The position numbers and the translations under genes were made by a program. From Defluviitaleaceae bacterium (GTDB lineage Bacteria; Bacillota; Clostridia; Lachnospirales; WQUN01), in assembly GCA_009779755.1 (NCBI GenBank), contig WRDO01000015.1, positions 1 through 64,000 on the forward strand: a stretch of DNA of 64,000 bases, given 5' to 3'. Shown piece by piece: positions 58,117-63,338 of this stretch; position 1 is the stretch's first letter, and each line of letters starts with the position of its first letter. The notes beneath the pieces were generated by a model. It was given only the letters and a program-made list of their open reading frames with translations. It searched no databases and had not been told where the DNA came from.

Positions 58117-59016
58117 ATGACTAATATCGCGGGGATGCCGGCGGGGATTTTTATTAAAAAAGTACGTAAGCAAAGAAGGTTGTCGCAACAGGAATTGGCT
58201 ATCGACATTTTGGACAGGACCCTAATATCAAGGCTGGAAAAAGGGAAGTACATGCCTCCCTACGATAAGCTGGCGCAATTGGTGGAACGCTTGGGCTTTG
58301 GTGCGGATATTATCGGTACGGATGAACGGCAATGGAAAGGTGAAATTGAAGGTTTATTATCGCGAAGGGAAACCGACCTTGCCGAACGGTTAATTGATAA
58401 ATTGGAAAATGACGATGGTTTTATTTCGAATGAAATCAACCGGCAATTCCTTATCGTCGCCAAGGTTGCCGCCGCAATCATAAAGAAAGAAATCCCCGGT
58501 AAAATTTTCGCATTTATCAGGAAAGGGTTATCCATCACCATCCCTTTCTTTAATGAAAAATACATTGAAGATTATCTATTGACCGGTAATGACATACAAT
58601 TAATTAATCAATTAACTATCACATATTGGGATACCGGGGAACGCGACAAAGCCATCGATTTAATGATGGCTTTAATACGTAACTTTGATAAATCATGCGC
58701 GGATCTGCGATATCGCAGCCAACATTATCCAACTTTGGTATATAACCTGACGTCTTATTTACGGGACATGAAACGCAACGAGGAAGCCCTTCATTTATGC
58801 GATATGGGTATTGTTTTATGTCTTAGTGCAAACGCATTGTTTACATTGCCTTTATTAATATCCAACAAGGCTTGTTGCCTGCTGGATATGAATAATAGAG
58901 ATGAAAGTCTCCATCTTTTCCGTCAGTCGTTTTATTTGTTTGACGCCTACAGAATGTTTGACCACAAGGAAACCGAAAGATTATTTGTCAAAGATAATTT
59001 TGGTATATCGTTGTGA
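58117..59016 (+). CDS. XRE-family HTH + TPR-like regulator (RNPP/Rgg-like), copy 1
   Basis: HTH 'IKKVRKQRRLSQQELAIDILDRTLISRLEKGKYMPPYDKLAQLVERLGF', helical repeat C-terminus. Confidence 0.88.
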   Translation: MTNIAGMPAGIFIKKVRKQRRLSQQELAIDILDRTLISRLEKGKYMPPYDKLAQLVERLGFGADIIGTDERQWKGEIEGLLSRRETDLAERLIDKLENDDGFISNEINRQFLIVAKVAAAIIKKEIPGKIFAFIRKGLSITIPFFNEKYIEDYLLTGNDIQLINQLTITYWDTGERDKAIDLMMALIRNFDKSCADLRYRSQHYPTLVYNLTSYLRDMKRNEEALHLCDMGIVLCLSANALFTLPLLISNKACCLLDMNNRDESLHLFRQSFYLFDAYRMFDHKETERLFVKDNFGISL

Positions 59017-59026
59017 TTCACCCAAT

Positions 59027-59209
59027 TCACAAATTAGGCATCGGTTTAATAGGTTGCGGGGGATGGTTTGAATACGGTTGAAAAATTTCGTATTCAACAC
59101 AACAATACGCCGATATATAATTTTTTTGTTTTATGATTGTTTCCGTTGCGGCAACATTCGCCAATACAACACCCAAGCAGACGATAACCATCATTAACAT
59201 CTTTTTCAT
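59027..59209 (-). CDS. Short secreted peptide precursor, candidate pheromone 1
   Basis: MKKMLMMVIVCLGVVLANVAATETIIKQKNYISAYCCVEYEIFQPYSNHPPQPIKPMPNL; SD ggaggttagttatg; convergent with the regulator. Confidence 0.75.
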   Translation of the reverse strand: MKKMLMMVIVCLGVVLANVAATETIIKQKNYISAYCCVEYEIFQPYSNHPPQPIKPMPNL

Positions 59210-59261
59210 AACTAACCTCCTATAATTTGTTTGGATTCGATTTTATTCCATATGCTTCGAC

Positions 59262-59299
59262 AAAAGTGTGAAAATCCGTCACAAATCCGTCACACTTTT
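59262..59299. promoter_or_regulatory. Inverted repeat AAAAGTGTGA...TCACACTTTT in the divergent intergenic region, candidate operator
   Basis: aaaagtgtgaaaatccgtcacaaatccgtcacactttt, perfect 10-bp arms. Confidence 0.6.
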
Positions 59300-59380
59300 T
59301 TATTTTTTTGTGATGCCTTTGCACACATTATGAAATATATAAATTTATAATCCAATTATAAAATTTAGGAGGATTTAATC

Positions 59381-59923
59381 ATGAAAAAGAATTTAAGAAG
59401 TGCGTTGGTTTTTTTGCTTCTCTCAGTATTTTTATTTACTCCTTTTCCGGTATACGGAGGAGACATTAAATTCCACCAATGCGATTTAAACCAAAGTGTC
59501 GGCACACAGCATCATGACATCGTAGAGCAAATCTTGTATCATCTAAACAAGGGTCATTTAACAATCAACCCATGCGGTCAACTGGTGATCGCCGAATCAT
59601 CCTTGGTGGCTTTATTGGAACCGATGATAAAAAGGACAAAAATAATTGCATACGATACATCCATTGGTCATAATTGTAATAACCAAAGCATTTCCGGTAA
59701 TTATTCTTTTGAACCTTTCGGGGCGTCCGGTTCGTGTACAAACATTTTTGGACATAAATGGAACGCATTTACAGAATGGGCAAGTGAAAAACAAACCCAG
59801 CATTTTCCACAGTGTGGTGTTGGCAGTTTGTGTCTTGCTCATTTATGGAGGATGAGGACTTGCAGCAGAACGCATTGCAAACAAATATATACTGAGCGTA
59901 TGACAGTATGGGTATGGTGTTAA
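59381..59923 (+). CDS. Secreted Cys-containing protein of unknown function
   Basis: Signal peptide MKKNLRSALVFLLLSVFLFTPFPVYGG; SD aggagg. Confidence 0.7.
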   Translation: MKKNLRSALVFLLLSVFLFTPFPVYGGDIKFHQCDLNQSVGTQHHDIVEQILYHLNKGHLTINPCGQLVIAESSLVALLEPMIKRTKIIAYDTSIGHNCNNQSISGNYSFEPFGASGSCTNIFGHKWNAFTEWASEKQTQHFPQCGVGSLCLAHLWRMRTCSRTHCKQIYTERMTVWVWC

Positions 59924-59925
59924 AC

Positions 59926-60279
59926 ATGAAAAAACGAAGCATTATCATATTATCAATCATCACGATAACGGTGGTTTCGCTGGGTTACCTGTGGGCTTGG
60001 CCGGCAGTAAACAACCATTTATTAAGAGGGCACAATAACCAATGCCTCGATTGCGCGGAAATATCCTACGAATTTATCCGAACGGGAGTTCTCGAGATTC
60101 CGTTTGCGGATGATGGGGTTACCGGGGCGGAACGATACGAAGGATTGCGTTTATTAACGGATTTCGATGAAATCCTCCGGCAAAGCCGTACGATATACCC
60201 GTTAAAGTGCGAAAGATGCCTAAACATAACGGCGCGCTCCATTTACCTAATGAACCCGCATTATTACGGAGATTCGTAA
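59926..60279 (+). CDS. Small membrane-anchored protein with CxxC-type motifs
   Basis: MKKRSIIILSIITITVVSLGYLWAW..., 'CLDC' and 'CERC'. Confidence 0.65.
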   Translation: MKKRSIIILSIITITVVSLGYLWAWPAVNNHLLRGHNNQCLDCAEISYEFIRTGVLEIPFADDGVTGAERYEGLRLLTDFDEILRQSRTIYPLKCERCLNITARSIYLMNPHYYGDS

Positions 60280-61584: not shown

Positions 61585-61648
61585 GGCATGTTAAGTAACC
61601 GCTGACATACATCCATGAACATTTAGATAAAAAGAGGGGGGATACGAA

Positions 61649-62548
61649 ATGACTAAAATCGCGGGGATGCCGGCGGGGTCATTCATCAAAAGAGTACGCA
61701 AGCAAAGGAAATTGCCGCAGCAGGATTTGGCCGTCGGCATCATGGATAGGACTACCCTATCGAAATTGGAAAGCAGTGCGCATATGCCACCCTACGACAA
61801 GCTGGCGCAATTGGTGGAGCGCCTCGGCTTTGGTGCGGACATCATCGGCACGGACGAACGGCAGCGAAAAAGCGAAATAGAAGGGTATTTATCACGGAGG
61901 GACACGGAGAGCGCCCACCGATTAATGGGTGAATTGGAGATTGACGATGATTTTATGTCAAATGGCAATAACCGGCAATTTATCATTATCGCCAAGGTCG
62001 CTTGCGCGATAATTAAAAAGGAAAACCCCGGCAGGATACTCACGTTGATTAGAAAGGGTTTGGAAATCACGATCCCCCACTTCCACGAAAAATACGTGGG
62101 GGATTATTTGCTGACGAGTAACGACATAGAATTGATTAACCAAATGACCGTCGTTTATTGGGAAAACGGTCAACGAAACGACGCCATAAATCTAATGACG
62201 TCGCTGGTACGCAACATTGACGAGAATTGCGCCGACCCGCGTTACCGCGGGCGGAACCTTCCCACGTTGTTGTATAACCTGACGTCGTACCTACATGAAG
62301 TGGGACGATACGAAGACGCGATACCTTTATGCGATAAAGGCATAGCCGTATGCCTGGAAACCTTTGCGTTATTTACATTACCGCAGTTAATCTCCAACAA
62401 AGCCTGTTGTTTATTAGACATGGGTGATAAGGACGAAAGCCTTAGGCTTTATCGCCAAGCGCTTGTTTTGTTCGATGTATATAAAAGATTCGATTATAAG
62501 GAAATGACCAGAGATTACGTTAAAAAAGCACTAAATATTGAACTATAG
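61649..62548 (+). CDS. XRE-family HTH + TPR-like regulator (RNPP/Rgg-like), copy 2
   Basis: Paralogue of 58117-59016 over its full length. Confidence 0.88.
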   Translation: MTKIAGMPAGSFIKRVRKQRKLPQQDLAVGIMDRTTLSKLESSAHMPPYDKLAQLVERLGFGADIIGTDERQRKSEIEGYLSRRDTESAHRLMGELEIDDDFMSNGNNRQFIIIAKVACAIIKKENPGRILTLIRKGLEITIPHFHEKYVGDYLLTSNDIELINQMTVVYWENGQRNDAINLMTSLVRNIDENCADPRYRGRNLPTLLYNLTSYLHEVGRYEDAIPLCDKGIAVCLETFALFTLPQLISNKACCLLDMGDKDESLRLYRQALVLFDVYKRFDYKEMTRDYVKKALNIEL

Positions 62549-62550
62549 CT

Positions 62551-62730
62551 TCATATAGAATGTGGCGGTCTTACCGGATCTTTAGGATGGGCAGAATTAG
62601 GTTGTATGATTGGTTGTTCAACGCAGCCATTTCTTTGTGTTTCATTCAATTGCCTTTCCGTTACTTCTACCGCTACCCCCGCAAATTCGATACCAAAACA
62701 AATGATGACAATCAATAACAGCTTTTTCAT
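62551..62730 (-). CDS. Short secreted peptide precursor, candidate pheromone 2 (59 aa, absent from the supplied ORF track)
   Basis: MKKLLLIVIICFGIEFAGVAVEVTERQLNETQRNGCVEQPIIQPNSAHPKDPVRPPHSI; SD gggaga; convergent with the regulator. Confidence 0.75.
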   Translation of the reverse strand: MKKLLLIVIICFGIEFAGVAVEVTERQLNETQRNGCVEQPIIQPNSAHPKDPVRPPHSI

Positions 62731-62786
62731 AACAAATCTCCCGTAATTCGATGTGGTTTAAATATACATTACATATCTTGATATAG

Positions 62787-62836
62787 GTGTGCAAATCCCG
62801 CACTCTTTTTTATTTTGTTGTATTTAATTTGCACAC
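62787..62836. promoter_or_regulatory. Inverted repeat GTGTGCAAAT...ATTTGCACAC, candidate operator
   Basis: Perfect 10-bp arms in the divergent intergenic region upstream of peptide gene 2 and the secreted protein gene. Confidence 0.6.
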
Positions 62837-62960
62837 ATTGAATTTTGTAAAAATATATATTACGAATATACAAAAAATTTACACCGGAGGGATGTTATAT
62901 ATGAGGGTTTTTTATTAAACATAATGTAAATAAAATTTTATTAAAAATGGAGAGATTTAC

Positions 62961-63338
62961 ATGAAAAGGAAATTAAAAACACTATTTATAACAATATTTA
63001 TATCCTCGCTCTTTATTGTTGGCATTCACACAGTTGTATTATCAAATACCTTTAATCCCAATAGTCTTTCTTTAATCGCCAATAACGTCGCGCAAATTGA
63101 AATCGGACAACCGAATAATATGATAACACCCAGTTCAAGTTCATCGGTAAATCAACGGGCACCTTGGGACGTGGGTGGGGGTGGGGGTGGGTCTCAACCT
63201 ACGCCAACACCGACACCAAGACCGACGCCTACGCCAACACCTCCTCCACATTGCGGATGTGGTGCTTTTTCTTTATGCAGATCGGGATTTATTAAATGTG
63301 AATTTGGTGGTACAAGGTATTGTTTTTGTCCCCGTTAA
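62961..63338 (+). CDS. Secreted small protein with Gly/Pro-Thr linker and C-terminal 6-Cys domain
   Basis: Signal peptide; 'PTPTPTPPPHCGCGAFSLCRSGFIKCEFGGTRYCFCPR'. Confidence 0.75.
   Translation: MKRKLKTLFITIFISSLFIVGIHTVVLSNTFNPNSLSLIANNVAQIEIGQPNNMITPSSSSSVNQRAPWDVGGGGGGSQPTPTPTPRPTPTPTPPPHCGCGAFSLCRSGFIKCEFGGTRYCFCPR

What the first reader, a model, noticed from the sequence alone, without database searches (positions are those of the whole stretch)
58117..63338. Two paralogous XRE-TPR regulator / convergent secreted-peptide cassettes: candidate RNPP-type signalling systems
Each full-length paralogous regulator (58117-59016 and 61649-62548) is followed, convergently and within 2-10 bp, by a ~60-codon gene with its own SD and an MKK-hydrophobic leader. 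The two peptides align and share the C-terminal motif C-V-E-x-x-I-x-Q-P-x-S-x-H-P-x-x-P-[IV]-[KR]-P (CVEYEIFQPYSNHPPQPIKP vs CVEQPIIQPNSAHPKDPVRP). Established knowledge: RNPP regulators (Rgg, PlcR, PrgX, NprR) bind short secreted peptides often encoded next to them, and some rgg/shp pairs are convergent. The Pro-rich motif does not match any pheromone class I recognise. Pheromone function is inference.
Basis: partly seen in the sequence, partly recalled or inferred. Interest (0 to 1): 0.88.

Follow-up and report, generated by a model that had tools for sequence, protein, structure and literature searches.

The report
PlcR-like regulators with convergent pheromone genes
Two neighbouring regulator genes in an uncultured Defluviitaleaceae-type bacterium each face a tiny gene for a secreted peptide that is probably their own chemical signal, and the same arrangement recurs across the family, so these bacteria appear to carry several private peptide-signalling channels of the Bacillus PlcR type.

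Summary
Both regulators are RNPP receptors of the PlcR type: PlcR is the best full-length PDB match by sequence (E 1.2e-19) and by fold, and both PlcR-aligned asparagines are conserved. Each faces a 59-60 codon Sec-leader peptide gene. The peptide profile finds exactly four members in 38 related genomes, each beside one of the four closest regulators. Across about 70 broader relatives, 30 (strict) to 32 (curated) have such a convergent peptide gene, in 12 genomes and 6 genera; other long ORFs of the window, 2 of 53.

Two features were not in the finding. (1) A long inverted repeat, different for each pair, lies about 50-75 bp upstream of the peptide ATG and just ahead of a -10 box: 18 of 35 peptide genes against 1 of 49 other genes. 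In the window it sits between the peptide gene and a divergent secreted-protein gene. (2) Peptide tails share an x-P-F-x core resembling PapR (ADLPFEF). Some receptors are double-length (XRE-TPR)2 fusions, outside the 250-500 aa limit of the published survey.

Best reading: autoregulated, PlcR-like peptide signalling controlling a divergent secreted protein. Pheromone activity is inferred. New variant of a known kind.

The parts
58117..59016 (+). Regulator 1: N-terminal XRE HTH (residues 10-61) plus TPR domain, RNPP/PlcR type; residues Q110, N164, N210 are conserved
   Evidence: Pfam HTH_19/HTH_3, RNPP_C 20.3 bits, below the 26.5 cut-off; AlphaFold2 pLDDT 93; PDB fold match PlcR 3u3w E 8.4e-9
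59027..59209 (-). Convergent propeptide gene 1, 60 aa, SD AGGAGG, Sec-type leader
   Evidence: peptide family
59057..59086 (-). Candidate pheromone core IFQPYSNHPP of propeptide 1 (residues 42-51); exact ends unknown
   Evidence: alignment with propeptide 2 and the two relatives; core position inferred from the family-wide x-P-F/Y-x pattern
59263..59329 (.). Candidate operator 1: imperfect inverted repeat AAAGTGTGAAAATCCGTCACAAA..TTTGTGATGCCTTTGCACACATT between peptide gene 1 and the divergent gene 59381
   Evidence: conserved GTGTGnA...CACAC blocks in four cassettes of three species
59240..59245 (-). Candidate -10 box (TAAAAT) of peptide gene 1, 17 bp after the repeat
59381..59923 (+). Divergent Sec-leader Cys-rich protein, 180 aa; candidate target of regulator 1
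   Evidence: homologues in G011, G014 and next to a related double-length regulator in G001
59908..60279 (+). Second gene of the candidate target operon: N-terminal membrane segment, two CxxC motifs, 123 aa
   Evidence: homologue directly follows the 59381 homologue in G011 and G014
61649..62548 (+). Regulator 2: XRE-TPR, RNPP/PlcR type
   Evidence: RNPP_C 37.1 bits, above the gathering score 26.5
62551..62730 (-). Convergent propeptide gene 2, 59 aa, SD GGGAG, Sec-type leader
62581..62610 (-). Candidate pheromone core IIQPNSAHPK of propeptide 2 (residues 41-50); exact ends unknown
62787..62836 (.). Candidate operator 2: GTGTGCAAAT-N30-ATTTGCACAC, between peptide gene 2 and the divergent gene 62961
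62761..62766 (-). Candidate -10 box (TATATT) of peptide gene 2
   Evidence: read from the sequence
62961..63338 (+). Divergent Sec-leader, Pro/Cys-rich 125-aa protein; candidate target of regulator 2

Best explanation
The region holds two tandemly duplicated, diverged quorum-sensing cassettes of the RNPP superfamily, PlcR-like. Each cassette encodes a cytoplasmic XRE-TPR receptor, a convergent Sec-exported propeptide whose C-terminal x-P-x core is cut out and re-imported as the pheromone, and a long inverted-repeat operator at the -35 region of the peptide promoter. In the window the operator is shared with a divergent gene for a secreted protein. Peptide bound in the TPR groove would change receptor action at its own operator, so that peptide gene and secreted protein rise together with cell density. 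Shown here: gene layout, homology, fold, conserved peptide-contact residues, co-occurrence of regulator and peptide, conserved operator-like repeats placed just ahead of -10 boxes. Inferred: export, cleavage, import, binding, sign of regulation, and targets.
For: PlcR is the top solved relative by profile (E 1.2e-19, residues 5-299) and by fold. Residues aligned with PlcR N159 and N201 are Asn in 37/43 and 41/43 homologues, and Q110 in 43/43; an Asn at the RapF N227 position is strictly conserved in RNPP and contacts the peptide backbone (PMC3601957). Convergent Sec-leader ORFs occur at 30/70 homologous regulators against 2/53 control ORFs, in 12 genomes and 6 genera. The peptide family is exactly four members, one per close regulator. 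Long inverted repeats lie before 18/35 peptide genes against 1/49 others, with -10-like boxes mostly 12-19 bp downstream. PF occurs in 12/32 peptide tails, 3.0 expected and at most 8 in 2000 shuffles, as in PapR ADLPFEF. Divergent Sec-leader proteins lie across the operator in all four core cassettes and in at least six others. A convergent PlcR-class precedent exists: tprA/phrA lie in opposite directions (PMC7595303). Four oligopeptide-binding-protein homologues are in the genome.
Against: About half of the wider regulator family has no recognised convergent peptide. The two window operators are individually weak against shuffles (z 3.5 and 1.9) and gain support only from the cross-species pattern. 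The window tails (QPYS, QPNS) depart from the PF core. The screening criteria were set after seeing the first examples, and three of the 35 automatic peptide calls look spurious. No expression, processing or binding data exist; the organism is known only from assembled metagenomes.
Confidence: 0.8

Rival explanations
1. The convergent peptide is a downstream product, such as a bacteriocin-like or host-directed secreted peptide, whose gene the XRE-TPR regulator merely controls; the regulator senses some other ligand.
For: The peptide gene has an operator-like repeat like any target, and the divergent genes are also secreted proteins. Some peptides contain Cys.
Against: One-to-one pairing directly at the regulator 3' end with diversified tails and a PapR-like PF core, and a conserved peptide-binding Asn in the receptor, are what a ligand-receptor pair predicts.
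Confidence: 0.12
2. The small ORFs are not translated; the convergent transcripts act as antisense or terminator RNA on the regulator mRNA.
For: The genes are convergent with 2-10 bp gaps, sometimes overlapping by up to 40 bp.
Against: SD sequences, ATG starts, Sec leaders and tail motifs recur across genera, and the four peptides align as proteins with conserved Cys, Ile and Pro positions.
Confidence: 0.03
3. The inverted repeats are RNA hairpins (terminators or attenuators) and not operators.
For: Arms of 20-30 bp would fold stably as RNA; a few repeats elsewhere near these regulators are terminator-like.
Against: They lie between divergent genes where no known gene ends, upstream of a -10-like box, so they should not be in the peptide mRNA.
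Confidence: 0.1

Closest known systems
PlcR-PapR (Bacillus cereus group)
   Same: Closest solved receptor by sequence and fold; 5-TPR class; Sec-leader propeptide; PapR core PFEF resembles the PF core of the wider family; PlcR-regulated genes encode extracellular proteins (literature).
   Different: papR lies about 70 bp downstream of plcR (PMC6753895) and, from own knowledge, on the same strand; here the peptide is convergent. No PlcR box (TATGNAN4TNCATA) at the peptide genes. Here each pair has its own operator, and the window cores are QPYS/QPNS.
TprA-PhrA and TprA2-PhrA2 (Streptococcus pneumoniae)
   Same: PlcR-class regulator with a Sec-exported peptide encoded in the opposite direction; controls neighbouring secreted-peptide genes (PMC7595303, PMC5436883).
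   Different: Different peptide code (PhrA tail from own knowledge); only one or two such systems described per strain; no double-length receptors reported in the papers read.
RRNPP candidate subfamilies of RRNPP_detector (PMC10075063)
   Same: Adjacent receptor and propeptide in varied orientation; 21 new candidate subfamilies.
   Different: That survey used complete genomes only and receptors of 250-500 aa, so this uncultured clade and its roughly 640-aa receptors were outside it.

Membership tests
RRNPP receptors | N-terminal HTH (except Rap) plus C-terminal TPR domain | tested here: met
   Pfam HTH and TPR/RNPP_C; AlphaFold2 model and PDB fold search
RRNPP receptors | RNPP_C (PF18768) above gathering score | tested here: inconclusive
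   Regulator 2 met (37.1 vs 26.5 bits); regulator 1, 65% identical, not met (20.3)
RRNPP receptors | Conserved peptide-backbone-binding asparagine | tested here: met
   N210 and N164 align with PlcR N201 and N159; 41/43 and 37/43 conserved
RRNPP receptors | Adjacent gene for a small exported propeptide (basic N-terminus, hydrophobic region, C-terminal signal) | tested here: met
   no signal-peptide predictor was available, so the leader was judged by hydrophobicity
RRNPP receptors | Mature peptide secreted, re-imported and bound by the receptor | not testable with these tools
   Only presence of four oligopeptide-binding-protein homologues in the genome
PlcR-PapR proper | Peptide gene downstream on the same strand | tested here: not met
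   Convergent
PlcR-PapR proper | PlcR box TATGNAN4TNCATA at targets | tested here: not met
   No match at the cassettes' promoters; window count equals chance
TprA-PhrA | Regulator and peptide genes in opposite directions | tested here: met
TprA-PhrA | Regulator represses, peptide relieves | not testable with these tools
   Sign of regulation unknown

The most novel reading that the evidence does not exclude
This bacterial family carries a diversified set of private peptide channels in which receptor, pheromone and a long palindromic operator diverge together. It includes single-chain double receptors (XRE-TPR-XRE-TPR, about 640 aa) that may read peptide twice or act as covalent dimers, an architecture not found in the RNPP literature searched here.
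Probability: 0.45. Interest if true: 0.72.

Novelty: new variant of a known kind. Interest (0 to 1): 0.6.

Why it matters
It puts PlcR-type pheromone signalling into a little-known uncultured Clostridia-type family, with up to five candidate systems in one genome by this screen. Each has its own peptide and mostly its own palindrome, so receptor-peptide-operator specificity can be studied and used as orthogonal parts. The operator gives a direct binding test, and the divergent secreted proteins give candidate outputs. The double-length receptors raise a clear question on how RNPP receptors use dimerisation.

Tried and rejected
Genome-wide regulon search with the half-site ATGTGTGCAAA gave four places in the genome: the two operators, one inside a coding region, and one intergenic place on C6 without a second arm, so no wider regulon is claimed. 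The looser spaced pattern gave mostly non-symmetric chance-like hits. The peptide profile found no copies without a regulator and no further proteins in 5.8 billion. The PlcR box was rejected. Phage origin: regulator 1 hits only generic HTH repressor PHROGs and no phage genes were seen near. The genome-contig scan with an 11-member alignment failed for lack of conserved stretches; a 4-member alignment gave two named relatives. Receptor-peptide co-folding was not possible with the allowed inputs.

Full report
Observation. The two regulators, their convergent small genes, the gaps of 10 and 2 bp, the SD sequences and the shared C-terminal motif are all as described. The regulators are 65-66% identical. 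DNA similarity of about 70% covers the regulators and, as a separate block, the 5' part of the peptide gene and its upstream region, so the cassette was probably duplicated as a unit.

Organism and setting. The window is contig 15 of a 3.1-Mb, 98% complete genome. The two nearest named relatives holding the regulator are metagenome-assembled 'Defluviitaleaceae bacterium' genomes. Their bin names suggest termite gut; that is from own knowledge and was not tested. Upstream lie divIC, yabQ and yabP homologues.

Receptor. Pfam gives HTH plus RNPP_C; regulator 2 is above and regulator 1 below the RNPP_C gathering score. A profile of 11 homologues finds PlcR as best PDB entry over the full length, E 1.2e-19. 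The AlphaFold2 model (pLDDT 93) matches PlcR best, then ComR, Rgg2 and PrgX. In the HMM alignment, N164 and N210 fall on PlcR N159 and N201 (residue numbers counted from the printed alignment). They are Asn in 37/43 and 41/43 homologues, and Q110 is invariant. The asparagine at RapF N227 is described as strictly conserved in RNPP proteins and binds the peptide backbone (PMC3601957).

Peptides. The profile of the four closest peptides finds exactly those four in 38 genomes, each at the end of one of the four closest regulators. Among 70 wider homologues, 30 carry a convergent Sec-leader ORF under strict criteria, against 2 of 53 other long ORFs of the window (the two regulators left out) and 3 of 70 on the same strand. 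After removing three doubtful calls from a relaxed list, 32 pairs remain, in 12 genomes and 6 genera, with up to five in one genome. Tails are diverse but share a core around Pro-Phe: TPFDIG, QPFDLG, IPFDVA, IPFCEI, APFCDL. PF occurs in 12 of 32 tails against 3.0 expected, and never more than 8 in 2000 shuffles. PapR is ADLPFEF with a conserved PFEF core (PMC6568020). The window tails carry QPYS and QPNS at the matching place. That correspondence is inference.

Operator. Upstream of the peptide genes lies an inverted repeat with arms up to 30 bp, perfect in several cases (L068, L061), usually ending about 50-75 bp before the ATG. Score 15 or more is reached by 18 of 35 peptide genes but 1 of 49 other window genes. 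A -10-like hexamer follows mostly at 12-19 bp. The repeats differ between pairs. The four core cassettes share GTGTGnA...CACAC. In the window they are 59263-59329 and 62787-62836. Both lie between the peptide gene and a divergent gene for a Sec-leader protein. All four core cassettes, and at least six others, have such a divergent secreted-protein gene. Since the flanking genes point away, the repeat is not a terminator of either.

Candidate targets. The 180-aa protein 59381-59923 and the overlapping gene 59908-60279 form a two-gene unit also found in G011 and G014. A homologue of the first follows a double-length regulator in G001. This second association with a related regulator supports it as a target. 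Its function is unknown; a secreted protein with a membrane partner would fit a bacteriocin and immunity pair, which is speculation.

Double receptors. 25 of the 72 regulators collected are about 580-720 aa with two XRE-TPR units in one frame; 12 of them have a convergent peptide, 8 of these with a strong repeat. RRNPP_detector accepts receptors of 250-500 aa and was run on complete genomes only (PMC10075063), so these were outside its reach. One literature search found no description of fused RNPP receptors; it covers open-licence papers only.

Mechanism. Most likely a PlcR-like loop: basal peptide is exported, trimmed, imported by an oligopeptide permease (four SBP_bac_5 proteins are in the genome), bound in the TPR groove, and changes the receptor's action on its repeat, driving peptide gene and divergent gene together. 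The repeat at the -35 position fits activation; repression relieved by peptide, as in TprA/PhrA (PMC7595303), is not excluded.

Limits. Criteria were refined on the first examples; the control set is small and from one window; about half of the wider regulator family lacks a recognised peptide; nothing is known of expression or binding.

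Noticed in passing
G000:C11:44387-46795, G000:C58 (L003/L008), and 23 more in relatives (e.g. L022, L036, L046-L048): Double-length regulators of about 580-720 aa made of two XRE-TPR units in tandem, many with a convergent peptide gene and a long inverted repeat.
   Followed up: partly
59381-60279; L146:3024-3943; L147:2167-3055; L148:2581-2994: A two-gene unit (secreted Cys-rich protein plus small membrane CxxC protein) conserved in other genera without Pfam match; possible bacteriocin/immunity-like pair. 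L148 shows only the first gene, after a double-length regulator.
   Followed up: partly
60524-61195: A 223-aa ORF with a lipoprotein-like signal (IIASC) between the cassettes, no Pfam or PHROG match.
   Followed up: no
24835-24881: A 20-bp inverted repeat (90%) just upstream of a BrkB-family membrane protein gene (23984-24802, minus strand).
   Followed up: no
L042 (G011:C29), 3' of the regulator: A convergent Sec-leader frame with a strong repeat but no ATG/GTG/TTG at the expected start; possible unusual start codon, so the automatic screen missed it.
   Followed up: no
L036 (G001:C32) and L061 (G001:C14): Two pairs in one genome share the outer operator half ATGTCCATAAC[AG]T but differ in the inner part and in the peptide tail; possible cross-talk.
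   Followed up: no
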